Assembly (NCBI RefSeq): GCF_028898845.1
Contig: NZ_CP118575.1
Span: 1 to 64,000 of the forward strand
From: Streptomyces sp. WZ-12
GTDB lineage: Bacteria; Actinomycetota; Actinomycetes; Streptomycetales; Streptomycetaceae
Length of the DNA stretch: 64,000 bases
Reading direction: 5' to 3'
In this document: positions 554-44,008 of the stretch, piece after piece
How the letters are laid out: every line of letters starts with the position of its first letter
Position numbering within the stretch: the stretch's first letter is position 1
The notes under the pieces: generated by a model
What the model was told of the DNA's origin: nothing
Databases searched by the model: none
The model's input: the letters and a program-made list of their open reading frames with translations, nothing else
Translations under genes and position numbers: made by a program

Positions 554-598
554 TGAGCGGTCAGTTCGGGTCTTGCTGGGCGGACAGCTCATCTCCCG
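554..598. repeat. IS21 terminal inverted repeat, left
   Basis: The segment with core GTCAGTTCGGGTCTTG pairs with the right end at 3231-3275. The 16-base core CAGCTCATCTCCC side is nearly perfect. Confidence 0.7.
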
Positions 599-631
599 TC
601 GCGGTATGACTTTTCGTCCCTCGGTTGGCGG

Positions 632-1474
632 TCAGTTGGCGGTGATGAGAGGTTGGACTCCCTGGCCGGTGGTGGCCTGGGTGAGGCGGAGTGAGGAGCC
701 TTCGGTCAGCACGATGTGAGCGTGGTGCAGGAGGCGATCGACAGCGGCGGTGGCCAGTGTCTTGGGCATGATCGAATCGAATCCTGAGGGATGAAGGTTC
801 GAGGTCACGATGACCGAACGGCGTTCGTAGGCGGCGTCGATGACGCGGTAGAAGGCTTCGGCGGCGGCCTGGCCGCAGGGCAGCATGCCAATGTCATCCA
901 CGACGATCAGATCACATCGGGTGATCTTCGCGACGGCCTTGGAGACGGTGTTGTCGACGACGGCCCGGCCGAGGTGGGCGGTGAGGGATTCGAGGGTGAA
1001 CCAGGCGACTTTCATCCCTTCGTCGATGGCCTTGTTGGCGAGTGCTTCGGCCAGGTGGCTTTTGCCCGTGCCGCTGGGGCCGGCGGCCGCCAAGTTCTCC
1101 GCCCGGCCGATCCACTCCAGCGTCATCAACGCGTGCTGGGTTGGGACGGGGATGGAGGAGATGTCCTCCTTCCACGACTCGAAGGTCTTGCCCGAGGGGA
1201 GTTGAGCCTGCTTGCGGTGGTTGCGTCTGGTGGCCGCGTCGCGGCCCTTGATCTCTTCCTCCAGCAGGATGCGGACCACTTCAGCGGGGTCCCACCGTTG
1301 TGATCTCGCGGTCGCGAGGACTTCGGGGGCGGCCCTGCGGAGGTAGGGAAAACGCATGCGCCGAAGGACGGACTCCAGCTCGGGCGGGATCGGCGGGGCC
1401 GTCGGCGGCGGGGGAAGCGGTGTCGGGGGCGTCTGGGTGACGACCTCGACGGGATCCATCACGGGGGCTGTCAT
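632..1474 (-). CDS. istB: IS21 helper ATPase IstB
   Basis: A 280-residue AAA+ ATPase that assists the IstA transposase and shapes target DNA. The Walker A motif GPSGTGKSHL lies near residue 135 and Walker B LIVVDDIG near residue 190, followed by TSNLHPSGF, as in IstB/DnaC-type ATPases. The length is normal for IstB apart from a proline-rich N-terminal extension of about 35 residues. It sits 75 bases downstream of istA in the same orientation. It appears intact, so the element may be active. Confidence 0.9.
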   Translation of the reverse strand: MTAPVMDPVEVVTQTPPTPLPPPPTAPPIPPELESVLRRMRFPYLRRAAPEVLATARSQRWDPAEVVRILLEEEIKGRDAATRRNHRKQAQLPSGKTFESWKEDISSIPVPTQHALMTLEWIGRAENLAAAGPSGTGKSHLAEALANKAIDEGMKVAWFTLESLTAHLGRAVVDNTVSKAVAKITRCDLIVVDDIGMLPCGQAAAEAFYRVIDAAYERRSVIVTSNLHPSGFDSIMPKTLATAAVDRLLHHAHIVLTEGSSLRLTQATTGQGVQPLITAN

Positions 1475-1549
1475 GTCAACTTCCTTTCCATGGTGCCGGG
1501 TTGGGAGGGTCCCCGTTCCCGGGCCGCAAAGCGGCCCGGGAACGGAAGA

Positions 1550-3118
1550 TCAGGCGGGTTTGACGCGGCCGAAGTCGGCCCAGGCGGAGGTGCCGGGTTG
1601 GACGGAGTGGGCCTCATCGGCGACGACCAGGTCGGCGGGGCGGGAACCGTGGCGGCGGTGTTGGACGATGGACATGAGGTCCTCTTCGGCGAACCGTCCG
1701 GCGGTCGCCGCGAGCCCGAGGGCGATGTCGACCTCGCCGACACCGACCAGAGCGGCCAGTTCGACGGCGGCGGCCATCTTGACCCGCATCCTGCTGGTGC
1801 CGGCCGCGGCGGCTTCGATCAGCCACGACTTGGCCCCCGGGCCGAGGTCGAGGAATGCTTTCTCCGCGTCCGTGCTGGGCTTGGGTTTGGGCTGGCGGGG
1901 ACCACCGTCCATGTCCTGGGGGTGGTTGGGGTAGTGGGTCAGGTCGATCACCGGCCGTCCGGGCAGGGAGAGTTGGTGCCGGGCGACTTCCACCAAGCCG
2001 GCGGGGCCGTGCATCCACTCGGGCCGGTGGGCAAGGCGGGACAGGTCGACGACGATGACCAACTCGTCGCCGTCGGCACGAACCCAGGCTTCGGAACCGA
2101 CCAGGCCCGGCGGGGTCGAGTAGCGGACCGATCCGAAGCGGACCGTCTGGTCCTTGAGGACCTGCCTCGACTCGCCCAACGCGAGGGTGTGGGGGGCCTC
2201 GGGCAACGGATGAAGCCGCTTCTTTTCGATGTCGAGCATGGCCGCCGGCGTCTTGCCGGTCTCGCGGTGGATGCGCTGGTTGACCTGCTGGCAGAACACC
2301 GCGCAGGCCCCGCGGAGTTCGGTGAAACTGTCGTACTCGCCCAGCAGATTGGCATCAGTGGGCACCAGGTCGGCCTTCGCGATGCGGACCGTGGCCTCCG
2401 AACCGCCCTTGGATTCCGGATCGAAGGGGACGCATGTGTGCACTTGCACGCCGTAGTGGCGGCCCGTGCCCACCACCTGAGGGTGGCGGACGGCGACACC
2501 GGCGACGCGGTCGATGGTGACGGTCTTCTCGTTGTCGGTCAGCGCATAGGTCGGGACCCCACCGAACTGCCGCAGCATGGAGTCGATGCACGAGATCAGC
2601 GTGCCCAGCGACCGGTCCCAGGCCGGGACCACCACCCGGTAACGGGACCACGCCAACCACGCGCAGAACAACAGCGTTTGGCGGGGCTCGCCACCGCCTG
2701 GGCCAGGCACTTTCGGTCCCCAACCCCAGTCGAATTGGCACCAGAGCGCAGGTTCAGCGATCCATGGGCGATACGTTCTGCGGTGGCCGGCCTTCCACCG
2801 TTCCTTCGCCTTCGCCACCGCCCGGCGGGTCGTGCGCTCATCACCGGTGAAACCCAGTAGTTGCAGGCGTTCGTGGAGCTTGTCGGCACGGACCTTGCCC
2901 TGCGAACGTTCGACCCACTCCTCGATCTTCGGCATGAACGGGTCGATCAGCTTCGGGCGGACGATCGGTCCGTCGACGGGCATCCCCCTGTCCCTCATCC
3001 GTGCGTACCGGCGCACGGTCTTGGGATCAACCCCCGCCAGCTGAGCCGCCGAGTACACGCACTCGGTGGCATCCAACGCCTCGAAGATCTCCATCACTTC
3101 CCTGGCATTCTTCTTCAC
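1550..3118 (-). CDS. istA: IS21 transposase IstA
   Basis: A 522-residue transposase. The N-terminus carries a helix-turn-helix (AAQLAGVDPKTVRRYARMRD, residues about 22-41). The DDE core is visible as QFDWG near residue 128, ALTDNEKT near residue 191, and a downstream acidic residue in FDPESKGGSE. The start is the ATG 100-120 bases inside the right inverted repeat. No frameshift or internal stop is seen. The element has inserted into a small gene, pieces of which flank it. Confidence 0.92.
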   Translation of the reverse strand: MKKNAREVMEIFEALDATECVYSAAQLAGVDPKTVRRYARMRDRGMPVDGPIVRPKLIDPFMPKIEEWVERSQGKVRADKLHERLQLLGFTGDERTTRRAVAKAKERWKAGHRRTYRPWIAEPALWCQFDWGWGPKVPGPGGGEPRQTLLFCAWLAWSRYRVVVPAWDRSLGTLISCIDSMLRQFGGVPTYALTDNEKTVTIDRVAGVAVRHPQVVGTGRHYGVQVHTCVPFDPESKGGSEATVRIAKADLVPTDANLLGEYDSFTELRGACAVFCQQVNQRIHRETGKTPAAMLDIEKKRLHPLPEAPHTLALGESRQVLKDQTVRFGSVRYSTPPGLVGSEAWVRADGDELVIVVDLSRLAHRPEWMHGPAGLVEVARHQLSLPGRPVIDLTHYPNHPQDMDGGPRQPKPKPSTDAEKAFLDLGPGAKSWLIEAAAAGTSRMRVKMAAAVELAALVGVGEVDIALGLAATAGRFAEEDLMSIVQHRRHGSRPADLVVADEAHSVQPGTSAWADFGRVKPA

Positions 3119-3230
3119 GATCCCTCCGGGAGGAGTCGCTCATATGTGATCGGGCAATCACGAGCAAACCCCCGGAGGGATTCATCTGTTCGGAATGGAT
3201 GTTCGGACTGCCTCGAATAGCCCAATCACC

Positions 3231-3275
3231 AGGGAGATGAGCTGTCCGCCAGCCAAGACCCGGAATGACCGTCTA
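3231..3275. repeat. IS21 terminal inverted repeat, right
   Basis: Inverted partner of 554-598. The segment GAGCTGTCCGCCAGCC is followed by AAGACCCGGAATGACC. Confidence 0.7.
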
Positions 3276-3390
3276 CCTGGATCTTGCGCTGTCCGCTGTC
3301 ATAGATCTGGGCCCAGTCGATCGAGCACCCGAGATAGGGCTGCGTGGCGTCGACCCGTCCGGCGTCGGGGTGCACGGCAATGAAAGGCAT
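3275..3390 (-). pseudogene. 5' part of the gene split by the IS21 element
   Basis: An ATG at 3388-3390 opens a frame beginning MPFIAVHPDAGRVDAT and containing GCSIDWAQIYDSG. It runs into the IS21 right end with coding-like codon use. Together with 361-553 it would form a protein of about 100 residues. I do not recognise it. The reconstruction is an inference from matching orientation and open frames. Confidence 0.35.
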
Positions 3391-3873: not shown

Positions 3874-4284
3874 CTACTGTCCAGCGGCGGTACGGCGCGG
3901 CGGAATGCGCAGGCCCTGGTACCCGGGGCCGAGGCCGCGCCGCGTCGGCCGGCGAAGGGGGGTTGGAGGGGTGACGACCTGCTCCTGGTCGCGGTCCCCT
4001 TCGTCGACGGGGAGGCCGAGGTCGCGGCGGAGCCGGGCCAGGGCCTGGACAACGGTGCCCAGCGCCGCAGCGGCGGCTGGATGCGCGGTGTGCAGGGCGA
4101 GCGCGGTGGTCTCCATCGCCTCGACCGCGTCGTCGGCGGCGGCCACGCTCCAACTCCTTGAGGAACTGGCGGCATCGGCCAGTTCGCACGCGGCATCGGC
4201 CAGAGCCTCGGCCTGCTCCGCAACGCCCGGCGCCGCGACGGTGGGCAACAGGTCCATGACCCGGTCAACGACGTTCGGCGGCAA
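3874..4284 (-). CDS. hypothetical helical protein
   Basis: 136 codons from a TTG at 4284, preceded by TAGGAG at a workable distance. The product is alanine-rich and mostly predicted helical in its first 100 residues, then arginine- and proline-rich. No motif is recognised. It lies downstream of the lasso cluster on the same strand but 239 bases away with no visible coupling, so it should not be counted as part of the cluster. The overlapping longer minus-strand frame from 4799 has non-coding composition. Confidence 0.45.
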   Translation of the reverse strand: MPPNVVDRVMDLLPTVAAPGVAEQAEALADAACELADAASSSRSWSVAAADDAVEAMETTALALHTAHPAAAAALGTVVQALARLRRDLGLPVDEGDRDQEQVVTPPTPLRRPTRRGLGPGYQGLRIPPRRTAAGQ

Positions 4285-4522: not shown

Positions 4523-5545
4523 CTACTGGGACAACTGCAGGTCCCAGCCCCCCGTGTCCCCGTTGTCCGTACGGGCCAAGGTTGCCTGGTAGGTCTCGGG
4601 GGCGGGACGTCCGGCGGCCTCCCATCCGGCCAGCCAGTCGCGCAGGATGGTGAGCGACTGCGAGTCGGGCTTGTCGGCGAGGATCATGCCGTCCTGCTGG
4701 ATAACGGCAGCGGACTTCTGTGTGGAGTGGCCGATTGCGCACAGGTCCGGCGTCAGCCCGGCCATGGTCAGATTCTGGTCGGAGGTGGCCGCGACCCACG
4801 TGCGCCAGCTTGGCCAGTCGATCCTCTCCCCGGCGTACGGCGCGGCGTATCCAGGGTTACGCAGCTGGTCCAGAACGATGCGGGCGCCAGTGCCGCGCCA
4901 GTCGTCCGTGTCCCGCCAGGCGATCGAGATCCATGTTTGCTCTGGAACGCGGTACTCCCAGTCGACCCATCGTCCGGGCATGGTGAAGTCCGTGCGGACC
5001 GAGGCGGTTGCTTCGATATACCCGCCGTGGAAGATCGCCTCCACGCGAGGCTGCCCGTCTGCGACGCGGATCTTGGCGACGACGGTGAGATTGGGGACCG
5101 CGGCGATCGGCAGCGGGGTGACGATGACGCCGGCGTTGGCGAGTTGGTCGATCCATGCGTCCGGCAACAGCGTCGGGGTGCACCAGGCCACCAGGCGATC
5201 GTAGGAGGCGCGTTCGGGGTGCCCGGCGGTGCCGTCGCCGGTGAAACAGTCGACGTTCTCCACACCACGTTCCTGGTGAATGGCGTTGGCCCAGCGGGTC
5301 AGGTAGGGGTCGATGTCAACGCTGGTGACGGCTCCAGAGGCACCCACGAGGTTGGCAAGGAGGGCGCCGGAGTAGCCGGAGCCGGTGCCGATCTCCATGA
5401 CGCGCATGCCCTCAGCGACCTCCAGTGAGGTCAACTCCCGGTGGATGACTGCCGGGTTGGAGCGGTGCGGGGTGGGCCCGCGGCCTTCGTGGTGGGTGTA
5501 GTGGCGTTCGGGGACGGTTGCGGCGACCTCGGCGACAGGGGGCAT
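4523..5545 (-). CDS. lasso-peptide PIMT-type O-methyltransferase
   Basis: A 340-residue SAM-dependent methyltransferase of the protein-L-isoaspartate methyltransferase (PCMT) family. The SAM-binding motif I is VMEIGTGSGYSGAL near residue 50 and the acidic loop VTSVDIDP near residue 75. The C-terminal 130 residues extend beyond a housekeeping PIMT (about 210 residues). The start is an ATG preceded by GAAGGAG. It is the last gene of the A-C-B1-B2-M cluster, 76 bases after B2. In known lasso clusters of this layout (cellulonodin-2, lihuanodin) the PIMT homologue methylates an in-ring aspartate, which then closes to an aspartimide. That role is inferred here. Related enzymes also serve FxLD lanthipeptides and graspetides, but the neighbours argue for lasso. 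Confidence 0.85.
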   Translation of the reverse strand: MPPVAEVAATVPERHYTHHEGRGPTPHRSNPAVIHRELTSLEVAEGMRVMEIGTGSGYSGALLANLVGASGAVTSVDIDPYLTRWANAIHQERGVENVDCFTGDGTAGHPERASYDRLVAWCTPTLLPDAWIDQLANAGVIVTPLPIAAVPNLTVVAKIRVADGQPRVEAIFHGGYIEATASVRTDFTMPGRWVDWEYRVPEQTWISIAWRDTDDWRGTGARIVLDQLRNPGYAAPYAGERIDWPSWRTWVAATSDQNLTMAGLTPDLCAIGHSTQKSAAVIQQDGMILADKPDSQSLTILRDWLAGWEAAGRPAPETYQATLARTDNGDTGGWDLQLSQ

Positions 5546-5621
5546 GCTTCACTCCTTCGGGCGATGTGTCGGGCATGTACTTCAACTGCTCCGGCCGGGT
5601 GGGGACACGCCCTGCCAGGGT

Positions 5622-6062
5622 TCAGATGCTTAGGGCGGTGCGGTGATGCCACCCGCCGAGGGTGTACTCGCCTACCGGACCTGTGCCTGGCAGTTCGGCC
5701 CAGGCGTGGTACTCGACCGGTGGCGGGCAGAAGCGGGCCCCGAGACACCAGTTGAGGCGGCGGCCGAGCAGGGCGGCTGCGAGCACGGCGCCCAGCGAGG
5801 TCTCCATGCAGGCGGCGCGGCCGGGCCACCACCGTGCGGTGTGCCGTACGGCGTCGACCAGCTCCTGTGCTCGCGTGGGGTCGAGCGGGCGTCGGCCGGC
5901 CCGGCGTGCGAGGCGGGCGGCGCGGAGGGTGTAGCGGAAGCGGAGGTGGCGGCGGACGGGCAGGTGTAGCAGGACGAGCGCCAGGGCGAGGCCCGCGGCG
6001 GCCGCGCATCGCTCGGGGTAGGTGCCGCTGCGGGTGGTGGAGTACGCCTCGATGCTGGTCAT
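5622..6062 (-). CDS. lasso-peptide B2 leader peptidase (transglutaminase-like)
   Basis: A 146-residue cysteine protease that removes the precursor's leader. Family features are a basic helical N-terminal half, a catalytic Cys in WPGRAACMETSLG (about residue 85) and a His in EYHAWAEL (about residue 119). The usual third acidic residue is not obvious in the short C-terminus. The start is the ATG at 6062, whose last bases overlap the B1 stop (ATGA). The longer frame from 6077 would lie inside B1. Coupled translation with B1 fits the need for the RRE protein to present the substrate to this protease. Confidence 0.88.
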   Translation of the reverse strand: MTSIEAYSTTRSGTYPERCAAAAGLALALVLLHLPVRRHLRFRYTLRAARLARRAGRRPLDPTRAQELVDAVRHTARWWPGRAACMETSLGAVLAAALLGRRLNWCLGARFCPPPVEYHAWAELPGTGPVGEYTLGGWHHRTALSI

Positions 6063-6355
6063 CGCCACCACCTCCAACCTTGCCGCCGCGAGGGCGCATC
6101 GCTGGGCGTGGCGAGGCCCTGGGCGGTGAGGGTTTCGGCGATGGTGCGGATGTCGGTGGTGGCCTGCTTGGTGGAGATGCCGTAGCGCTGGGCGAAGCGG
6201 TTGGCGGCCTGCTCTTCGGTGGGGCAGGAGAGTAGGAGCATGACGGCGGCGGCTGCGGTCGGGGTGAGCTGGGTCCAGCGTCCGGTGTGCTCGTTGAGGA
6301 TGGCGCCGCCGTCGTCGGTGAGGATGGGGTGGGCGCGTTCACGCAAGAGCCACAC
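6059..6355 (-). CDS. lasso-peptide B1 / RRE (PqqD-like) protein
   Basis: 98 residues. It resembles the PqqD-fold RiPP recognition element that grips the leader's YxxP segment: GGAILNEHTGRWTQLTPTAAAAVM, then helices with AANRFAQRYGI and ATTDIRTIAETL (each shown in part). I place the start at the GTG at 6355, which overlaps the cyclase stop by 17 bases. An internal TTG is an alternative. The long upstream extension of this frame lies inside the cyclase gene and is not coding. Stop and B2 start overlap as ATGA. Confidence 0.85.
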   Translation of the reverse strand: MWLLRERAHPILTDDGGAILNEHTGRWTQLTPTAAAAVMLLLSCPTEEQAANRFAQRYGISTKQATTDIRTIAETLTAQGLATPSDAPSRRQGWRWWR

Positions 6356-8177
6356 GGGGGGTGACCTCCTCCCACCATTGCTTGGGTGCGAAGGCCAGTT
6401 GCCGTAGCCAGACCTCGGCGGCGACCACCAGGTGGAGGGTGCCTTGGGCGGTAGGCTGCCCGGCGGCGGCGCGTTCGAGCGCCGAGGTGATGGGGTACTC
6501 GGTGACCAATCCCAGAGCGGCCAGCCGGGAGGACGGCCCCAGCAGCTCTTTGAGGACTCGGGCGTGGTCGCGCAGGCCCGCGTAGGCAAGTGCGTTGAAC
6601 CCGCCCTTCGTCGTGCGGGCCAGGACGAAGGGAGGCAGCACACCGGTACCGGTGAAGGCGGCGTCCAACAGCGGCTTGTACTGGGCGGGTTCTCCGCGCC
6701 GGTCGGCGGGGACGGCGAGGCAGGCGCGGATCACCTCGTTGTCCAGGTACGGGGCGGCCAGCTCGATGCCGTGCTCGGCGAGGGCGAGCGCCCGCCAGCC
6801 GGCGGTGTTCGTACCGAGGCGCGCCAGGTCCTGGCGGTCGCTCCAGTCCGCCAACCGCACGGGGGCGTCGGTGAGTTCTTCGGCGGCCTGGTCGAGGGCG
6901 GCGGCCAGGCGGCGGCGGACGTCGGGGGCCATCCAGTCCGCCGAGGCCAGCAGCGGGGTCCAGGAGATCGGCCGCTGGGCTTGGGGAATCCAGTCCCGTG
7001 CGGGGCGGCGGAGTTCGGCCGCCGTCCGCAGCCAGGACCCGGCAAGGCCAGTGCGAGCCGCGTCCTTCACACGGGCCAGAACGGTGAAGGCGGAGGTATG
7101 CCGCAGCCGGGCGTGGATGACCGCGTGGCTCAATGCCCGGCGGTGCTGCCGTTCGCGCAGCAGATCCGCGAGATAGGAGGACGGGGCGGACAAGACCGCG
7201 TCCCCGGCCGCCCCGGTGAAGTGCACCCCCGGCCCCGGCATCTTCTCAACGACGGTGCCGAGCACGGCCCGTTTGATGGAAGCGGTGACCACATAGGGGT
7301 TGGGCGCGTCCGTGGCCGGCAACTCCGTCAGGTCATTGAGCCCGGCGTAGTACACCGCGTCGGCGGCGCCGGGTACCGCGTGGTGCGTCAGGCTCGGCAC
7401 CGCGGCCGCGGTGCGACGGGCGTAGGCGAGGTCGTCGTCGCGGAGGCGTTCGTCGGCGTAGGTCACCGCGGTCACGGGAGCGTGCTGGGCGGCTAGGCAG
7501 GCCAGGGTGGTGGAGTCCAGCCCCGCCAAGTCCGCGCTCACGGGGCGATCGTCGATACGGGTAGCGACGGCCTCGGTGAGCGCGGCCCGCACCGTCGGGG
7601 CCGCCTCCCGCAACGCGACCGAGGGATACGTGACCGGCTCGTACCGCTCGACGGCGGCGCCGTCGGGGCCGAGCAGCAGCAGATGGCCGCCCGGCACCCG
7701 CCGCACCGACCGGAACAGGCTGCGCTCGGCAAGCGCGTCCGGCTGGCTGAAGGCCAGGTGGGCGGCGAGGACGGTCACGTCGACCGGCGCCCCGTCCAGC
7801 GCCGCCAGCGCGGAGGCCGTCGTCGACCACCAGGTGCCGGCCGCGTCCTCGCGGTAGTAGACCGGGTGCTGCCCGGCCAGGTCACCGACTACCGCCAGGG
7901 TCTCGCCACTGCGGGCGACGACGAGATATGAGCCAGGCCAGCCGGTCAGCGCGGGCCACCCGCGCGCTCGTACTGCGGGCAGCGCTTCTCGAAGCTGCCG
8001 GTCACTGGCGCCGCACTCACCGACCGTCGTGAGGACCACTGGGCCTTCGCCGGCGGACCTGACTCGGGCAGTTGGCCACCCGACCGTCCATGTGTTCTCC
8101 AGGCCGGGCACCGCCCGGCCGCCGGCGGGCTGCCGATCGTGCCTGGTGCCGCCGTACCATCCCGCGCTCCACCTCAT
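6339..8177 (-). CDS. lasso-peptide cyclase (asparagine-synthetase-like)
   Basis: A 612-residue protein that adenylates the side-chain carboxylate of the core's Asp/Glu and forms the isopeptide bond with the N-terminal amine. The N-terminal half is a glutaminase-like fold without the catalytic Cys2 of AsnB (the protein starts MRWSAGWYG). The synthetase half shows the pyrophosphatase motif as SADLAGLDSTT near residue 200, later YLDNEVIRACLAVP, and KPLLDAAFTG. The ATG at 8177 has a strong AGGAGGGA upstream and is preferred over a longer frame into the precursor. It lies 156 bases downstream of the precursor gene. Confidence 0.92.
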   Translation of the reverse strand: MRWSAGWYGGTRHDRQPAGGRAVPGLENTWTVGWPTARVRSAGEGPVVLTTVGECGASDRQLREALPAVRARGWPALTGWPGSYLVVARSGETLAVVGDLAGQHPVYYREDAAGTWWSTTASALAALDGAPVDVTVLAAHLAFSQPDALAERSLFRSVRRVPGGHLLLLGPDGAAVERYEPVTYPSVALREAAPTVRAALTEAVATRIDDRPVSADLAGLDSTTLACLAAQHAPVTAVTYADERLRDDDLAYARRTAAAVPSLTHHAVPGAADAVYYAGLNDLTELPATDAPNPYVVTASIKRAVLGTVVEKMPGPGVHFTGAAGDAVLSAPSSYLADLLRERQHRRALSHAVIHARLRHTSAFTVLARVKDAARTGLAGSWLRTAAELRRPARDWIPQAQRPISWTPLLASADWMAPDVRRRLAAALDQAAEELTDAPVRLADWSDRQDLARLGTNTAGWRALALAEHGIELAAPYLDNEVIRACLAVPADRRGEPAQYKPLLDAAFTGTGVLPPFVLARTTKGGFNALAYAGLRDHARVLKELLGPSSRLAALGLVTEYPITSALERAAAGQPTAQGTLHLVVAAEVWLRQLAFAPKQWWEEVTPRVALA

Positions 8178-8333
8178 CGGTGTCCCTCCTGGTCCGTGCG
8201 AGTCATGTGCGACAGGGCGAAGGCGCCGGTCCGCCCGCTCGTGTGCCCAGACGAAGCGGAATCGGCCCGGCGCCTCCTGATGCCAGGGCCGGCCGAGGTG
8301 CGAATTCCCTGCCCGGCCCCGGCAGTTCACGGG

Positions 8334-8456
8334 CTACGCGTTCTTGTACTCGGTGTCGTCGGCGTGGTCGAAGTTGTTCGTGCCCAGCGTCACCTCGACG
8401 ACGTCGCCGGCGTCCAGCACGGTCGGCGTCACGTAGACCTCGGTGGTGTTCTCCAT
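8334..8456 (-). CDS. lasso-peptide precursor (A peptide)
   Basis: A 40-codon gene: ATG at 8454-8456, TAG at 8334-8336, preceded by GAGGAGAAGGGA. The leader is MENTTEVYVTPTVLDAGDV followed by VEVTL. It contains the YxxP segment Y8-V-T-P11 that B1 proteins bind, and the conserved Thr at position -2. The predicted core is GTNNFDHADDTEYKNA. Gly1 and Asp9 fit a nine-residue macrolactam ring, leaving a seven-residue tail. Asp6 is the only other aspartate in the ring and is the likely target of the downstream PIMT. Leader features and gene order are seen. Ring size and modification are inferred. Confidence 0.88.
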   Translation of the reverse strand: MENTTEVYVTPTVLDAGDVVEVTLGTNNFDHADDTEYKNA

Positions 8457-8597: not shown

Positions 8598-9974
8598 ATG
8601 GTCCAGCGCACGGCAAACCAGCAGCTCAAAGACCTCATCGAGGAGTCCGGTCTGCCGTACGACGGCATCGCCCGTGCCGTGAGAGCCGTGGCGTTGGAAA
8701 GCGGTGAGCGACTGGCGACCAACAAGTCGGCCGTCCACCACTGGACGCGCGGGGCGGTCCCAGACAAGCCGACCGCCAGCTACCTGGCCGAGGTACTCTC
8801 CCGTCGCCTCGGCCGCCGCATCACCCTCCATGACCTCGGGCTTAGTTCCCCCGACAGTGGCAAAGATGACAGCATCGGATTGATGCTTGACCTCGATCCC
8901 ATCGAGACGCTGACCACCATCGGGGAGGCCGATGTGAACCGCCGCCGATTCCTCGCCGCCTCCGCCTACTCCATGGCCGCCGCCGCCCTTCCCCTACAGA
9001 CCGTCCAAGAGGCCGCCGCCCGCACCCGCACCGTCAGCAGCGGAGGCGTGTCCGGGCACGCCGACGTCACAGCGGTGCGGGACATGGTCCGCCTCTTCAT
9101 GGACATGGACGAGCGCCACGGCGGGCAACACGGCCGCTCCGCCTTCGTGCAGTACCTGATCACTGACGTCGCGGAGCTGTGCCGAGGCCGCTTCGCCAAC
9201 GAGGAGGTGCGCGCCGAGGCGTTCTCCGTCGCTTCGGCCGGCGCTCACCTGGCCGGCTGGAAGGCATACGACAGCGGCGAACAGGGCCTCGCGCAGCGGT
9301 ACTACATGCAATCCCTCGCCTTGGCACGGGAGTCAGGAGTCCCCGGCCAGGACGGGTTTGTCATGCGCACCATGTCCCAGCAAGGCATGAAACTGCACCG
9401 CCCCGAGCACTGCCTCGCACTGGCCGAGACCGGCTGGAACCGCGCCAAGGGCCAGGTGGACTCGCAAACCGAGGCGCTCTTCGCCATCACCCACGCCCAC
9501 GCACTCGCCAAAGTCGGCCAGCGCCAGCGAGCCCTCGCGGACGTCGAGCACGCCCACACCGCCCTGGCCGCCGGCGACGAAGCAGACGTGCCGTTTTGGG
9601 CGTTGGTCTGGGGGCCACCCCCGGGCACCGTGCACTCCCGCACCGCGAAGGTCTTCGAAACCCTGGGCGACCGCCGCAACGCGGCCCACCAATACGCAAC
9701 CGCCGCCGCAAGCCGGCCCGGCACCACCTACGCACGAATCATCGCGCTCGACCTCGTAGCCCAAGCCGAACAGCAAGCCAAACAGGGCAGCATCGAGCAG
9801 GCGTGCGCCACCTGGCACCGGGCCATCGACACCATGGACGGTGTCCGCTCCGCCCGCACCCGCAAGGCCGTCCGCTCCCTCCGCTCCGACATCAGCTCCT
9901 ACCGAGCCCGCGGACTACAGTGCGCTGCCGAACTCGACGAACGAGCCCACGACTTCCTCACACACCAACGCTGA
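8598..9974 (+). CDS. XRE/TPR transcriptional regulator
   Basis: 458 residues from the ATG at 8598, which follows GAGGACGG. The N-terminal 80 residues form a Streptomyces-type helix-turn-helix (LIEESGLPYDGIARAVRAVA, then NKSAVHHWTRG, SYLAEVLSRRLG). Next comes NRRRFLAASAYSMAAAAL, then an all-helical region with TPR-like repeats (about residues 160-450). The frame continues upstream across the lasso gene only as a shadow. Its divergent position suggests it controls the lasso cluster, perhaps sensing a peptide, but this is only context. Confidence 0.75.
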   Translation: MVQRTANQQLKDLIEESGLPYDGIARAVRAVALESGERLATNKSAVHHWTRGAVPDKPTASYLAEVLSRRLGRRITLHDLGLSSPDSGKDDSIGLMLDLDPIETLTTIGEADVNRRRFLAASAYSMAAAALPLQTVQEAAARTRTVSSGGVSGHADVTAVRDMVRLFMDMDERHGGQHGRSAFVQYLITDVAELCRGRFANEEVRAEAFSVASAGAHLAGWKAYDSGEQGLAQRYYMQSLALARESGVPGQDGFVMRTMSQQGMKLHRPEHCLALAETGWNRAKGQVDSQTEALFAITHAHALAKVGQRQRALADVEHAHTALAAGDEADVPFWALVWGPPPGTVHSRTAKVFETLGDRRNAAHQYATAAASRPGTTYARIIALDLVAQAEQQAKQGSIEQACATWHRAIDTMDGVRSARTRKAVRSLRSDISSYRARGLQCAAELDERAHDFLTHQR

Positions 9975-23768: not shown

Positions 23769-24665
23769 TTAGGCAGTCAGGTCGGCGAAGCCGAGGTGCG
23801 TCATGACCTTGCGGTAGTCCACCGATGGCACGGAGTTCGGCAGGAGGACGGGCAGCGGGCACTCGTCCTCGTACAGCTTCTTCGCGTCGGCCGAGTACCG
23901 GACGTAGGGGAGCAGCACCGAGCCGTATAGGGCTTCGGCCTGGGCGGTGGCGCGGCGGGCCGCGGCTTCGTTGTGGCTGGAGGTCGGTGATCCGGTAAGG
24001 AGCATGTGATTGAGGGTGGGGCGGCCGGGCACGGAGCGCCGCCCGCGGTTCTTGTCCCTGACTCGCTCAAGCTCGTCGATGAGTCGCTTGACCATCTTGA
24101 CGTCCTTGGGGTCCGCCTTGATGGAAGGCATGACGGAGTCGTCCTCGTCCAGCATGCGAAGGACGGAGTACGGGAGTTTGCCGTAGCTGGCGGGGAAGTC
24201 CATGTAGAAGACCGTGTCGTCGCCTTGGTAGCTGCGGAGAATCTCGGCGAACCAGTCGTTGCGGTCAGGGTCTTCTGCGATGGCGGTGTCCGCGCCAGCC
24301 ATGAGGGGACTACTGGGGACCACCCGGAGATTCGGGATGGTGGCGAACGCGTCGTCGTCGTAGCCCTCGTCGATGCGGTATCGGGCGGGGAGGGCGACCT
24401 CGTCGAGGGTGGCGTTGCCGTACAGCAGGTCCATGGCAGTCTTCTTGCCCTTAAGGGCGGTCTCGTCGTAGCCGAGCACGAGGGAACTGGACATGTTGCT
24501 GTCGAGGTCGAACACGACACCCGAGTGCCCACGCAAGGCAGCTGTGACGGCCATGGAGGTGGCACTGGTGGTCTTTGTGGAGCCACCGCATTCGATGACA
24601 TAGGCCCAGATGAGAGGCCAGTTCCTGCCGTTGGGACGGAAACGGCGGTCTACAGCGGCGGTCAT
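23769..24665 (-). CDS. parA: ParA-type partition ATPase
   Basis: 298 residues from the ATG at 24665, which overlaps the parB stop (ATGA). The P-loop reads CGGSTKTTSATSMA (about residues 26-39) and motif A' VVFDLDSNMSSS (about 50-61). ParA/MinD ATPases normally have KGG at the loop start. Here that signature lysine position is a cysteine, which may change ATP-dependent dimerisation. A longer frame upstream lies inside parB and is not coding. Flanking palindromes and a ParB partner support a partition role. Confidence 0.82.
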   Translation of the reverse strand: MTAAVDRRFRPNGRNWPLIWAYVIECGGSTKTTSATSMAVTAALRGHSGVVFDLDSNMSSSLVLGYDETALKGKKTAMDLLYGNATLDEVALPARYRIDEGYDDDAFATIPNLRVVPSSPLMAGADTAIAEDPDRNDWFAEILRSYQGDDTVFYMDFPASYGKLPYSVLRMLDEDDSVMPSIKADPKDVKMVKRLIDELERVRDKNRGRRSVPGRPTLNHMLLTGSPTSSHNEAAARRATAQAEALYGSVLLPYVRYSADAKKLYEDECPLPVLLPNSVPSVDYRKVMTHLGFADLTA

Positions 24666-26008
24666 CGGTTTCCTCCTGCGGAGACCAGGCCGAGTTCCTT
24701 CTTTTCCCACTCGGTCTGCGGGACGTAGTCGGCGTGTTCCGTGAGCGTGCGGACGTGCTGGACCTCGCGCCAGGTCCAGGACTGACGGCGGGCTGCGGTG
24801 CGGAGCTCGGCTGCCGCCAGGCCACTCGCGAAGGCGGCGAGGCGCTGGAGATTGACGTCGCCGGACTCTTGCACAGCGGCGAAGTAGGTTGCGGCGTCGT
24901 CTGCTTCCAGGCCAACGCGGTTGGTCTCGCGCAGCCACGCGTAGGCGCGCTGCTGGGCAGCGGACTGTTGCTGCGGCGCGAGGACGGTAGTTGTGAGCAC
25001 CTGGAGGACCAGCTCGTGGGTCGCGGGATCAGCCGTGTCCGTGGTTTCCAACAGAAGTCGACATGCGGCGTCGCGGGCGGCGGCAGCGGTTCGTCGGGCT
25101 GACTCGTCCTCCCCTCCGGTCGACTTGGCCTTCTTGGGCTTCCGGGGGGCGGGCGGGGTGGCCACTGCGTTTCCATTGGAAACGGGAGCAGGGGGGGATG
25201 CGGGGGGAGTGCCCTCTTGCTCACTGGAACCGTTTCCATTGGAAACGGGTTCGTCGTTGTCCGGGGCGTCTCCGGGTTGACGCTGACGCGCCATGATCTG
25301 TGCGTGAGCTTCCGCCGGGCGCATGCCGCCGCGCACGAGGCCGAGGTAGTCCCGCTGGTCCTGACTGTCGAGCTTGTGCGCCTTCTCGGCTGAGCTGACC
25401 TTCAGCGTCCCTTCCCGGACCGCCTGCAATACCTCGGGGTCGAGCTCAAGGAGTCGGACACGCTTCCAAACGGTGCCCTTGGAGATAGCGCCGTTGGCGG
25501 TCTCTCCCACCTTTTCGGCGATCTGCTCATAGGAGAGCCCGGCGTCGCGGAGTGCTTGGTAGTGCTCGGCTTCTTCGAGGGGGCTGAGCTGTGCACGACG
25601 CAGGTTTTCGATCAGGGTGATGAGGCGCGCGTCCTCAACCTTGTCGTCGCGCAGCGTGCTGGGGATGGTGGACCAGCCCAGCTCCTGGAAGGCGAGCCAG
25701 CGGTGTTCGCCGAAGAGGATCACGTTGGGGGCGGTGACCTGGTCGGCGGTCTCCGGGTAGACCTTGAGCCACTCTTCAGCGCGAATGTGAGCGATGTTCT
25801 GCAGCAACCCGACCTCGGCGATCGTGGCAGCGAGTTCAGGTACTCCCTTCTTCTCCCGTTTGTTGAACGGGTTGGGGCACAGGGAGTCCAGCTCCAGGTC
25901 CAAGGTGTCGCCGCTGCGATCCTTGTCGGTGTAGAGGAGCTCTTCGGGAGCAGCCGCGGTCGTCTTCGTGGTGCTCTTACGCTTGGGCCGCGGGAGTGCG
26001 CCTGCCAT
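24662..26008 (-). CDS. parB: ParB-type centromere-binding protein
   Basis: 448 residues from the ATG at 26008, with CTGGAG upstream. A longer frame to 26317 crosses two palindromes and is not credible. The N-terminal ParB/Srx-like domain includes LCPNPFNKR, LAATIAEVGLLQNI and the nucleotide-binding box FGEHRWLAFQELG (about residue 100). A KorB-type HTH follows (SYEQIAEKVGETANGAISKG, then TVWKRVRLLEL). The C-terminal half is a disordered SNGNG linker and a helical dimerisation region. Two parS-like palindromes are embedded in the linker's coding sequence, where they encode the repeated VSNGN motif. Confidence 0.85.
   Translation of the reverse strand: MAGALPRPKRKSTTKTTAAAPEELLYTDKDRSGDTLDLELDSLCPNPFNKREKKGVPELAATIAEVGLLQNIAHIRAEEWLKVYPETADQVTAPNVILFGEHRWLAFQELGWSTIPSTLRDDKVEDARLITLIENLRRAQLSPLEEAEHYQALRDAGLSYEQIAEKVGETANGAISKGTVWKRVRLLELDPEVLQAVREGTLKVSSAEKAHKLDSQDQRDYLGLVRGGMRPAEAHAQIMARQRQPGDAPDNDEPVSNGNGSSEQEGTPPASPPAPVSNGNAVATPPAPRKPKKAKSTGGEDESARRTAAAARDAACRLLLETTDTADPATHELVLQVLTTTVLAPQQQSAAQQRAYAWLRETNRVGLEADDAATYFAAVQESGDVNLQRLAAFASGLAAAELRTAARRQSWTWREVQHVRTLTEHADYVPQTEWEKKELGLVSAGGNR
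25169..25183. promoter_or_regulatory. parS-like palindrome 2 (inside parB)
   Basis: GTTTCCATTGGAAAC, encoding part of the parB linker PVSNGNA. Confidence 0.8.
25232..25246. promoter_or_regulatory. parS-like palindrome 3 (inside parB)
   Basis: GTTTCCATTGGAAAC, 63 bases from site 2, in the parB linker. Confidence 0.8.
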
Positions 26009-26051
26009 TGATTCTCCAGAACTGCCGTCAGAAGTACGGCCCGAGACTAGC

Positions 26052-26066
26052 GTTTCCATTGGAAAC
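26052..26066. promoter_or_regulatory. parS-like palindrome 4 (parB promoter)
   Basis: GTTTCCATTGGAAAC, 44 bases upstream of the parB start. It is suited to ParB autoregulation as well as centromere function. Confidence 0.85.
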
Positions 26067-26137
26067 GGCGCGCCGCCGGTGCCGTTAAAACCCCCTTCGG
26101 GCGGTTTGATGATGGCACAGGGGCCACGGCGTTGAGC

Positions 26138-26152
26138 GTTTCCAATGGAAAC
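26138..26152. promoter_or_regulatory. parS-like palindrome 5 (parB promoter)
   Basis: GTTTCCAATGGAAAC, 86 bases from site 4. The rest of 26009-26477 holds no gene. Confidence 0.85.
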
Positions 26153-26315
26153 GCCTTGGGCAGCCGCCCCCTCGACACGGACCTCGCTCGCAGTGAACCC
26201 GCCAAGGGCAGCAACAGTGGGCAGGCAACCATCCGCCATCAGCTTTGAGGCAGGTGCCCAACGCCCGCTGCTTGGGAGCACAGTTCGGCTGGTACCGAGA
26301 GATGGCGCTGAAAAC

Positions 26316-26361
26316 ACGAGAAGGTCCGCCCCACATCGTCTGTGGAAGCGGACCTTCTCGT
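26316..26361 (-). terminator. intrinsic terminator after the RapZ-C/HIT operon
   Basis: ACGAGAAGGTCCGC pairs perfectly with GCGGACCTTCTCGT (14-bp stem, 18-base loop). On the minus strand it is followed by GTTTTC. It lies about 115 bases past the minus-strand stop at 26478. Confidence 0.85.
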
Positions 26362-27287: not shown

Positions 27288-27730
27288 GGGCGTAAGTCGG
27301 GCAGCTGCCGGAGGACCTGCGCGATCAGGTCTTCGGTGGGCCTCCATGGCCCGAGCTGTCCACGTGCGGGGATCGGCAAGGCGAGCTCTTGGACGTCGGC
27401 GAGCTCCAGGTGCCACCGGCCGGGCTCAGCCCACGGTGTGCAGGGCGGGGAGCCGTCCGGGTCCTGGTGGCAGCCGGTCAGCCGGGCAACGCCGATCACC
27501 ACGCCGGTTGGCAGGTCGCGACCGCGGATCGTACGGGCGACTAACGGCAGGCGGAGGGCAGGTCGGTCGATCTGCAGGCCCGCGTGCAGCAGGAGCCAGC
27601 CGCGCCAGGCCCAGGGCTGCGGACGGTTCTCGATCGGCTTGGCCCCGACGGCGATGCACGTAGTCCACGGCTGCTTGACGCTGATTCCGCGGATCCAGTC
27701 GCCCGCCGGTGGAAGGGTGGCGGTGCTCAT
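27284..27730 (-). CDS. ASCH-domain protein
   Basis: 148 residues. The ASCH fold (RNA- or modified-nucleotide-binding beta-barrel) is indicated by ISVKQPWTTCIAVGAKPIEN near the N-terminus, WRGWLLLHAG, and GVVIGVARLTGC. The start ATG overlaps the upstream diguanylate cyclase stop, and its own stop overlaps the HIT gene start, so the three genes form a tightly coupled operon. Some ASCH proteins hydrolyse N4-acetylcytidine. Activity here is not known. Confidence 0.8.
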   Translation of the reverse strand: MSTATLPPAGDWIRGISVKQPWTTCIAVGAKPIENRPQPWAWRGWLLLHAGLQIDRPALRLPLVARTIRGRDLPTGVVIGVARLTGCHQDPDGSPPCTPWAEPGRWHLELADVQELALPIPARGQLGPWRPTEDLIAQVLRQLPDLRP

Positions 27731-28404
27731 GCCGCTCGCCCATACACGGCCGTGCCCTGCCTGCCCGCCCGGCGCCCGTTGATGGACGGGACCGTGGTGT
27801 GCGCGGCGGTGGCGAGGACCGCGCGGCCGGAGTGCTTGCCGTCGTACAGCGCCGCGTCGGCCGCCCTCTGAAGGGCGGTCAGGTCGCGGGTGCCGAGGAC
27901 GTCGGGGGTCGCGGCGCCGACCGAGGCGGCGACGTCGACGGTGCGTCCGTCATCCAGGACGACCGGGGTGTGCAGCATCCGGACCAGTTGCGCCAGGCGC
28001 TGCTCGCGACGGTCGACAGGCAGCTCCAGGACGACCGCGAACTCGTCGCCCCCGAGGCGGCCCACAGCAGCACGCGGGCCCGCCCACGCGGTGAGCCGGG
28101 CACCGAACGCGGCGAGGACGGCATCCCCGACCGGGTGCCCGGCCGTGTCGTTGACCCGCTTGAAGTGGTCGACGTCGACAATGAACACGGCCGTGGTGTC
28201 GCCGCGGCGCGCGAGGATCCGGCGAGCGCGGGCTGTGTAGGCGTCGCGACGCAGCAGACCAGTCAACGGGTCCTTCCGCGTGGCAGCGAGCCGCTTATGT
28301 AGGGCGATGGCGTGTACGACCCAGCCGGTCAACGGCACGGCAGCGGTGGTCAGCAAGAGTGCGCGCTGTCCGATTCGGGCCTGCACGCGCAGGGCGGAGT
28401 CCAT
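27727..28404 (-). CDS. diguanylate cyclase (GGDEF domain), membrane-anchored
   Basis: 225 residues. One N-terminal transmembrane helix (ALLLTTAAVPLTGWVVHAIAL) precedes a GGDEF domain: DPLTGLLRRDAY, VFIVDVDHFKRVNDTAGH, and the intact active-site motif RLGGDEFAVVLE (about residues 115-126). It should make cyclic di-GMP, which controls development in Streptomyces. No RxxD inhibitory site or sensory domain is evident. The C-terminus has about 30 extra basic residues. It leads the operon with ASCH and RapZ-C/HIT. Start ATG preceded by GAGAGGGAG. Confidence 0.85.
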   Translation of the reverse strand: MDSALRVQARIGQRALLLTTAAVPLTGWVVHAIALHKRLAATRKDPLTGLLRRDAYTARARRILARRGDTTAVFIVDVDHFKRVNDTAGHPVGDAVLAAFGARLTAWAGPRAAVGRLGGDEFAVVLELPVDRREQRLAQLVRMLHTPVVLDDGRTVDVAASVGAATPDVLGTRDLTALQRAADAALYDGKHSGRAVLATAAHTTVPSINGRRAGRQGTAVYGRAA

Positions 28405-42252: not shown

Positions 42253-42363
42253 GACCGCCACCCGGCACCGCCAGAGGACCGCCACCCCACCGCCACCTGA
42301 CCGCCACCCGGAGCTCTGGGTGGCGGTGGGGTGGCGGTGCCCTGGCGGTGCCGGGTGGCGGTC
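42253..42363 (-). repeat. 43-bp near-perfect inverted repeat built of GCCACC units
   Basis: Arms 42253-42295 and 42321-42363 match at 41 of 43 positions around a 25-base loop. They are themselves built from repeated ACCGCCACC units. The right arm overlaps the stop of the TraB-like gene. As RNA it would be a very stable stem ahead of the hydrolase gene, acting as terminator or attenuator. Confidence 0.85.
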
Positions 42364-44008
42364 ACGAATCGGACATCGCGGCGGTGGTGAGGGCGGCTAG
42401 GTGGTAGCCCCGCGCGCCCTTCGCGCCCCTGCCGGCCGGAACGCCGAGCAGCTTCGAAAGCTTCTTTCCGCGGTCTGTCGGATCGGCTTCCACGACTCCG
42501 AGGAATGGAGCCAGGTCGGCGCTGGTGATGAAGTCCACCCCCTTGCTCTGCATCAGCTCGATTGCCTGCTTGAGCGGAGACTCCGGCGCCTTTTTCAGCA
42601 TCACTTGCTGCTGAGCCTGGGCACCATCGACTACCCCCCAGATGAATTCATCAGGGAAGTCGAATCCCCGGATGAGGGTGGATGCTCCGTTGGCGAAAAG
42701 GACACCCTGACCCTTAATTTTCGGATCGAGGAGTGCAGGGTTAATCGGCGCGACTGTCTCGAAGTACGTGTCACCCAGCGCGACCTTGGCCGTGCCCGAC
42801 GACGCTACGTAGAGACACAGCCGGTAAAGGAACTGATCCCGCACCACCACAGGAATTGCGTTCGTGGAAGGGCGCTGCGTCATGAGCACCGAGGAGATTC
42901 CCGATTCCAAAGACTTGGAGACCAGCGACCTCGTGTCCTCAGCAATCTGCCGGGCTTGGTCCTTCTCTTCATTCGTTGCGCCGGAAGCGAAGAAGTCAGC
43001 GGCTTCATCCACGATGAAAATTACCGGCTTGAACTTCGGTACAGGCTGCCGATTACGGATGGCTTCCTTGATCTTCTCGTACCGACCGTCCGCGCGCCCG
43101 TTCAGCTCCCGGACCATACTCCGGAAGACGGCCGGGTCGTCTGACGATTCATAGCGCTTGGCGACCGGCTCGAACTTGGTCAGCCCGCAGAATTTCCCGT
43201 CGAGCAAATACAGCTCGAAGTCGCCGTACGCGATCAGCAGGCACGCGATAAGCCCATTGATCAACGTGGTTTTGCCCATTTGCGTCATACCGGCAACAAG
43301 CAGGGATGCTCTGTCGAACGTGGGCACTCCGGCAAGACGTCCAGTGACATCGTGACCGAGCGGAATGCCGGCGAACGTCTCGATCTCCTGCCGCGTCGGT
43401 GCCGCGAACGGGCGCGTGAACGGCGGCTCGTGGAGTTTGAGGAGCTTAACCTCGCGCTCGGTGTTCCGGGACGTCTCCAGTTTCAGATGCAGCCGGGTGA
43501 CGCCGAACATCGACGCAATGGGCCCGATCTGTTTGGCGACGTCCTCGTGGGTACGGCCCTTGGGCACCAAGAACGTGTACTGGGTGCCAATACCTGACAG
43601 TTCCTCCGTCCGTACGTCGGACAGCAGGACGGCCTCATCCTTGCCGATCGCGCCGGTACGAGTCAGAGCCGCAGTCAGTTCCGGGTGTATCGGAACGGCT
43701 GTCTCGGCGTCCGCCTCGGGCAGGGATTCCTGCGCCAAAGCCGTTGCCGTGGGCTGCGCTTCAGCAGGTCTTCTGGTCCACCACCGCATTAAGGCGATCT
43801 TGACCCTCCAGGCCGCGTAACCGAGCGCGACCAGTGTGCCCGCGGTGAACAGGATGGTCGCCGGCCAGTTGAGGCCCAGCTTGGTCTTGATCGCGATCAG
43901 GACTGCCAGGACCATGCCCAGGCCGCCGATTGCACCAGCAGCGTGGGCGTAGATGTCGTCATGCTCGCGACTGTCGCGCCTTTCGTACCGGTGGGTATTT
44001 TTTCCCAT
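42362..44008 (-). CDS. TraB/FtsK-type conjugative DNA translocase
   Basis: 548 residues, ATG preceded by GGGGGGAG. Two N-terminal transmembrane helices ([31 protein letters not shown]) precede an FtsK motor: Walker [17 protein letters not shown] near residue 240, Walker [15 protein letters not shown], and [17 protein letters not shown]. The C-terminal 60 residues ([29 protein letters not shown]) look like the winged helix that binds clt sites in TraB. In Streptomyces a single such protein moves double-stranded plasmid DNA. Confidence 0.88.

What the first reader, a model, noticed from the sequence alone, without database searches (positions are those of the whole stretch)
4523..8456. Complete lasso-peptide cluster with an isoaspartate-methyltransferase-type tailoring enzyme on a linear replicon
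Seen: precursor, AsnB-like cyclase, RRE protein, B2 protease and a PIMT-family methyltransferase in one minus-strand series with overlapping starts. Known: lasso clusters with PIMT homologues (cellulonodin-2, lihuanodin) make aspartimide-containing rings. Inferred: this is another such system with a core sequence I do not recognise. No export ABC gene or isopeptidase is visible, so export and self-protection are unexplained.
Basis: partly seen in the sequence, partly recalled or inferred. Interest (0 to 1): 0.92.

Follow-up and report, generated by a model that had tools for sequence, protein, structure and literature searches.

The report
Aspartimide-type lasso peptide cluster, His variant
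A Streptomyces bacterium carries, on a second replicon, the genes for a tiny knotted peptide and for an enzyme that probably converts one aspartate in the knot's ring into a reactive imide, with an unusual histidine at the position thought to control what happens to that imide.

Summary
Window 4523-8456 encodes an intact lasso-peptide cluster: precursor A, cyclase C, B1, B2 and a PIMT-type methyltransferase M. It belongs to a family widespread in Streptomyces; I compared 17 unbroken clusters including this one. A divergent HTH/TPR-like regulator (8598-9974) sits beside 16 of the 17 and should be counted in. M groups with lasso-associated methyltransferases, apart from the FxLD, graspetide and other PCMT proteins tested. 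The core is GTNNFDHADDTEYKNA: ring Gly1-Asp9, Asp6 the expected aspartimide site. Published lassimiditides have Thr or Ser at position 7, and Thr7 is reported to steer imide hydrolysis back to Asp; here it is His. Of 120 precursors listed (of 205 hits), 113 have Thr, 5 Ser, 2 His: this one and one of unnamed source. So this is a known kind of system with a natural variant at a mechanistically loaded residue. In 392 genus genomes I count 20 loci: intact M without intact C at 4, the reverse at none (one undecidable). That is weak support for a protective role of M; chance decay is not excluded. Linearity of the replicon was not shown, and no chemistry was done.

The parts
8334..8456 (-). Precursor A: leader MENTTEVYVTPTVLDAGDVVEVTL, core GTNNFDHADDTEYKNA
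   Evidence: NCBIfam lasso leader L3 23.4 bits, cut-off 19; 36-80% identical to 17 precursors of relatives; 205 hits among proteins at E <= 10
8358..8384 (-). Codons of core residues 1-9 (predicted ring Gly1-Asp9, with Asp6-His7 at 8369-8364)
   Evidence: read from sequence; D9 in 120 of 120 and D6 in 119 of 120 listed precursors
6339..8168 (-). C: asparagine-synthetase-like macrolactam cyclase (ring closure)
   Evidence: NF033561 361 bits, cut-off 300; no departure from 129 columns conserved in >=90% of 22 rows
6059..6346 (-). B1: RRE/PqqD-type leader-binding protein
   Evidence: Pfam PqqD 34.3, cut-off 23.4; NCBIfam lasso PqqD 53.6, under its cut-off 70; no departure from 31 columns conserved in >=90% of 14 rows
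5622..6077 (-). B2: leader peptidase, transglutaminase-like; probable start 6062
   Evidence: NF033537 57.3, cut-off 33; no departure from 33 columns conserved in >=90% of 20 rows
4523..5545 (-). M: PIMT/PAMT-type O-methyltransferase with C-terminal extension and WXXXGXP (WEAAGRP)
   Evidence: PCMT 86.4 bits; tree; model pLDDT 93.8; Foldseek's best solved match is 1dl5
8598..9974 (+). Divergent HTH/TPR-type regulator, conserved neighbour
   Evidence: adjacent and divergent in 16 of 17 unbroken clusters counting this one, 25-81% identity in the others; no Pfam hit at 1e-5; counterparts annotated as TPR or HTH proteins in two plasmid records and as hypothetical in two

Best explanation
The cluster makes a 16-residue lasso peptide carrying an aspartimide ('lassimiditide' in the naming of Zhu and Link 2026). 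B1 binds the leader and B2 cuts after VTL; C joins the Gly1 amine to the Asp9 side chain around the threaded tail. M then methylates Asp6 of the threaded ring, and the His7 backbone amide expels methanol to give an aspartimide. Shown by sequence: genes, their intactness, family placement, core, conservation of D6 and D9. Inferred from characterised relatives: order of steps, substrate, product. Because residue 7 is His rather than Thr/Ser, I expect ready imide formation, and hydrolysis that need not return cleanly to Asp, so isoAsp or an unthreaded species may appear.
For: Curated family hits; intact conserved columns in C, B1, B2; M in a 38-row clade, 100/100 support, that holds all 28 locus-derived lasso-type M proteins (24 from lasso loci, 4 orphan copies) and ten database proteins; D6 119/120, T7 113, S7 5, H7 2, D9 120/120. 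Published: TceM and LihM act on Asp6 of threaded lassos with DTAD; T7L in lihuanodin favours isoAsp and unthreading; His at n+1 in imiditide NmaA, where changing it to Thr or Gly lowers aspartimide (PMC13001092, parts 1-3 of 5 read; PMC13352647, passages; PMC9266682, passages).
Against: No chemistry. Thr/Ser7, kept in 118 of 120 listed precursors, is replaced here. A second Asp-Thr pair (D10-T11) lies in the loop. The published WXXXGXP motif is in M and in 23 of 28 locus-derived M proteins (M included), but also in the FxLD protein, all three tgmC proteins and one of four other PCMT proteins examined, so it does not discriminate. The tree's outgroup branches are long and treekit warns of it. 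TceM and LihM sequences were not obtained, so direct similarity to them was not measured.
Confidence: 0.78

Rival explanations
1. M modifies Asp10 in the loop (Asp10-Thr11) rather than Asp6, as predicted for the published 'group 2' precursors with a conserved loop Asp.
For: D10-T11 is the only Asp-Thr pair left in this core; position 10 is Asp in 111 and position 11 Thr in 115 of 120 listed precursors. A loop-Asp group is described (PMC10787088, passages; PMC13001092).
Against: D6 is stricter (119 of 120) than D10 (Asn 5, Ser 3, Glu 1). The five divergent clusters read have D6-Ser7 but Gln, Lys or Glu at position 10. TceM and LihM act on Asp6 (PMC13001092).
Confidence: 0.1
2. M is mainly a protective enzyme: methylation/imide formation disarms the peptide for the producer, and orphan M genes act as immunity genes in non-producers.
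For: In 392 genus genomes I count 20 loci of this clade: M and C both intact 11, M intact with C lost or broken 4, C intact with M lost 0 (one undecidable, contig end), neither intact 4. Four such M genes (of G055, G131, G241 and of plasmid pSGZL) have pairwise dN/dS of 0.26-0.37 to the complete-cluster M nearest by dS, within the 0.18-0.48 of the seven other M genes printed. Two of them lie behind homologous TPR-type and GNAT genes. The immunity idea is raised as speculation in PMC13001092.
Against: Small numbers; C is nearly twice as long as M, and four of four in C by length alone has a chance of about 0.17 (my arithmetic from the coordinates); orphaning may be recent; M is broken or absent at four loci in the sample, and broken at three places outside it. 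G241 keeps B1 and B2, so it is not a lone M. The G336 break in C may be an assembly error. Remnants below the search thresholds (1e-70 for M and C, 1e-20 for B2) are missed. The three lone M genes lack their own cluster's precursor, so expression and role are unknown.
Confidence: 0.2
3. The His7 change marks a drifting, non-functional core in a cluster on its way out.
For: Decay is common in the family: broken or partial clusters at 8 of 20 loci (calls listed in the rival above), and eight of 120 listed precursors lack T11-(E/Q)12-Y13. The same genome holds a broken chromosomal B2-M remnant 94% identical in DNA to this one.
Against: No departure from >=90% columns in C, B1 and B2, and M is an open frame with the conserved SAM motif; a second precursor with the same DHAD but another leader exists (P0177).
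Confidence: 0.1

Closest known systems
Cellulonodin-2 / lihuanodin (lassimiditides, group 1 D(T/S)AD)
   Same: Predicted nine-residue ring Gly1-Asp9, Asp6 site, Ala8, PIMT homologue with C-terminal extension and WXXXGXP (features of the known ones from PMC13001092)
   Different: His instead of Thr/Ser at position 7; a Streptomyces clade with a conserved divergent TPR-type regulator; not compared with TceM/LihM by sequence
Imiditide NmaA/NmaM (type I pamtide)
   Same: His follows the modified Asp (PMC13001092)
   Different: NmaA is linear; here the substrate is expected to be a threaded lasso
Albusnodin/ikarugamycin-type lasso cyclases (NF033561)
   Same: C passes this model's cut-off
   Different: No acetyltransferase inside the operon; a PIMT homologue instead (albusnodin is Lys-acetylated: PMC13352647 passage)

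Membership tests
Lasso peptide cluster | Lasso leader, B1, B2 and macrolactam cyclase together | tested here: met
   B1 by Pfam PqqD and position only, under the NCBIfam lasso-PqqD cut-off
Lasso peptide cluster | Threaded isopeptide product | not testable with these tools
   needs expression and MS/NMR
Lassimiditide (lasso peptide with potential aspartimide) | PIMT homologue of the RiPP type with C-terminal extension in the cluster | tested here: met
Lassimiditide (lasso peptide with potential aspartimide) | Asp at core 6 and ring-closing Asp at core 9 | tested here: met
   residues present; that they serve so is inferred
Lassimiditide (lasso peptide with potential aspartimide) | Aspartimide actually formed on the threaded peptide | not testable with these tools
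   inferred from relatives
Published group 1 core motif D(T/S)AD | Thr or Ser at core 7 | tested here: not met
   His7; 2 of 120 listed precursors
FxLD lanthipeptide methyltransferase (TIGR04364) | curated cut-off | tested here: not met
   107.5 bits, cut-off 320
Graspetide methyltransferase (TIGR04188) | curated cut-off | tested here: not met
   121.8 bits, cut-off 380
Housekeeping PIMT (TIGR00080) | curated cut-off | tested here: not met
   80.8 bits, cut-off 159.05

The most novel reading that the evidence does not exclude
His7 is an evolved switch: its imidazole speeds imide formation and changes how the imide opens, so that this lasso is meant to convert to an isoAsp or unthreaded form, a naturally timed unthreading lasso; and M doubles as an immunity enzyme, which is why intact orphan copies persist.
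Probability: 0.08. Interest if true: 0.85.

Novelty: new variant of a known kind. Interest (0 to 1): 0.5.

Why it matters
What aspartimides do in RiPPs is an open question. Thr7 is reported to be what sends the imide back to Asp and keeps the lasso threaded. A natural peptide with His there, beside a sister core that differs at that residue alone, is a ready-made experiment on n+1 control. The orphan methyltransferases give a testable route to the self-protection question.

Tried and rejected
FxLD, graspetide or housekeeping identity of M: rejected. A role for the downstream ORF 3874-4284: no match in any of the 36 other loci compared. Viral contigs with M: none. Sequences of TceM and LihM: a third protein search, with divergent lasso methyltransferases, listed 120 of 1788 hits; neither source organism appears among the named rows. 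Rfam and tRNA scans of the window: nothing. Pattern of M versus C loss: suggestive only. A further genus sample of 305 genomes gave no hit that was new. The precursors next to P0002 and P0003, the nearest M relatives, could not be read.

Papers: PMC13001092 parts 1-3 of 5; passages of PMC13352647, PMC9266682 and PMC10787088; other papers only in search listings. The 2021 and 2023 primary papers on cellulonodin-2 and lihuanodin are not held, so their precursor lists were not seen. That His7 is unreported in lassimiditides rests on the review's wording (58 mined, seven with Ser7, group 1 as D(T/S)AD) and on searches.

Left out of the locus count: C homologues of 34-42% identity in the same sample. 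Of these, two fetched loci (L122, L124) have C and B2 but no M match, so lasso clusters without M exist among more distant relatives; several others were not fetched.

Full report
What is there. The window is the first 64,000 bases of the second contig (378,325 bases) of a 9.55 Mb genome. The genome is placed in the same genus as G055, whose 290,055-base contig has the length and M matches of plasmid pSTRVI01 of Streptomyces violaceusniger, hence Streptomyces. On the minus strand from 8456 to 4523 lie precursor A, cyclase C, B1, B2 and methyltransferase M. Profile hits pass curated cut-offs for leader, cyclase and B2; B1 passes Pfam PqqD but not the narrower NCBIfam lasso model. C and B1 overlap, as do B1 and B2 (ATGA); by the starts I chose, A-C and B2-M have gaps. 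Compared with relatives, C (22 rows), B2 (20) and B1 (14) show no departure from any column conserved in at least 90% of rows, so the enzymes look functional.

The unit is wider than reported. An HTH/TPR-like gene at 8598-9974, divergent from A, has a counterpart in the same place in 16 of the 17 unbroken clusters compared (this one included), at 25-81% identity in the others; in L083 none was detected beside A. The downstream ORF 3874-4284 had no match in the 36 other loci. No ABC transporter is annotated within about 9 kb of M in the four annotated plasmid clusters (the gene tables are incomplete). None appeared among the 36 window ORFs scanned with Pfam; these are A, B1 and 34 of the 56 candidates, so the window was not scanned whole.

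The core. The published lassimiditides have D6-(T/S)7-A8-D9, with Asp6 modified and Asp9 closing the ring in the two characterised ones; of 58 further mined ones seven are said to have Ser7 (PMC13001092). This core reads G1 T N N F D6 H7 A8 D9 D T E Y K N A. A profile search of precursors found 205 proteins at E <= 10, of which the best 120 are listed and were parsed: D6 in 119, T7 113, S7 5, H7 2, A8 112, D9 120, D10 111. The second His7 precursor, P0177, has a different leader and Gln12, so the change is neither unique nor easily a sequencing error; whether the two share an origin is unknown. I did not check each listed precursor for a neighbouring M. Five divergent clusters read have DSAD, DSSD or DSQD.

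Why His7 matters. In lihuanodin, Thr7 is reported to send the imide back to Asp; T7L favours isoAsp about 3:1, widens the ring by one atom and unthreads the peptide (PMC13352647 passage; PMC13001092). In the linear imiditide NmaA an 'uncommon' His follows the Asp, and replacing it by Thr or Gly lowers aspartimide (PMC13001092). So His here plausibly keeps imide formation going while leaving open how the imide hydrolyses. This is inference.

Decay and orphan methyltransferases. In 392 genus genomes searched with M, C and B2 (the weak chromosomal copy of G000), I count 20 loci of this clade: both M and C intact 11 (G000, G035, G055, G108, G169, G214, G230, G304, G342, G369, G387); M intact with C lost or broken 4 (second G055 copy, G131, G241, G336); neither intact 4 (chromosomal remnant of G000, G350, G426, G017); C intact with M lost 0; G159 undecidable, as its contig ends just after B2. 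Divergent C homologues (34-42% identity) were left out; two of those fetched, L122 and L124, have C and B2 without an M match. Outside the sample: plasmid pSGZL has an intact orphan M, G631 has a frame-broken C with intact M, while a S. albus plasmid, S. samsunensis and G731 have broken M. Four M genes without an intact C show dN/dS of 0.26-0.37 to the complete-cluster M nearest by dS, against 0.18-0.48 for the seven others printed. Numbers are small, and gene length alone could explain them.

Verdict. A well-supported new variant of a known kind: a lassimiditide-type cluster with a residue outside the published D(T/S)AD rule. The mechanism is inferred from characterised relatives.

Noticed in passing
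window ~558-3301 and C2 right end (locus L072): IS21 (istA/istB) left of the cluster; the last 693 bases of the contig are an inverted identical copy of window 2609-3301, so the contig ends inside an IS or repeat.
   Followed up: partly
L070 9135-9798 (chromosome C1): A broken B2-M remnant 94% identical in DNA to window 5134-5799: the chromosome of the same genome once held a close copy of at least this part.
   Followed up: partly
P0225, P0229, P0232, P0235, P0237; L121: Several precursors share an odd tail (..SVKS..) in place of T(E/Q)YK.., a recurring decayed or recombined form.
   Followed up: no
P0189: A precursor with Asp6 replaced by Gly (GTAD), which should not be a substrate.
   Followed up: no
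P0289, P0338: Proteins that seem to fuse a B2-type (transglutaminase-like) part to the methyltransferase.
   Followed up: no
L045 7132-10020; L078 8153-11775: Two orphan M genes in different genomes lie behind homologous TPR-type and GNAT genes (39% and 43% identity).
   Followed up: partly
window 6339-8168 and relatives: The cyclase PP-loop reads DLAGLDS in 18 of 22 C proteins compared, one residue shorter than the SGGLDS form of the divergent four.
   Followed up: no
window 24662-26317, 42362-44008, 27727-28404: ParB-like, FtsK/SpoIIIE-like and GGDEF proteins; the first two are in keeping with a plasmid.
   Followed up: no
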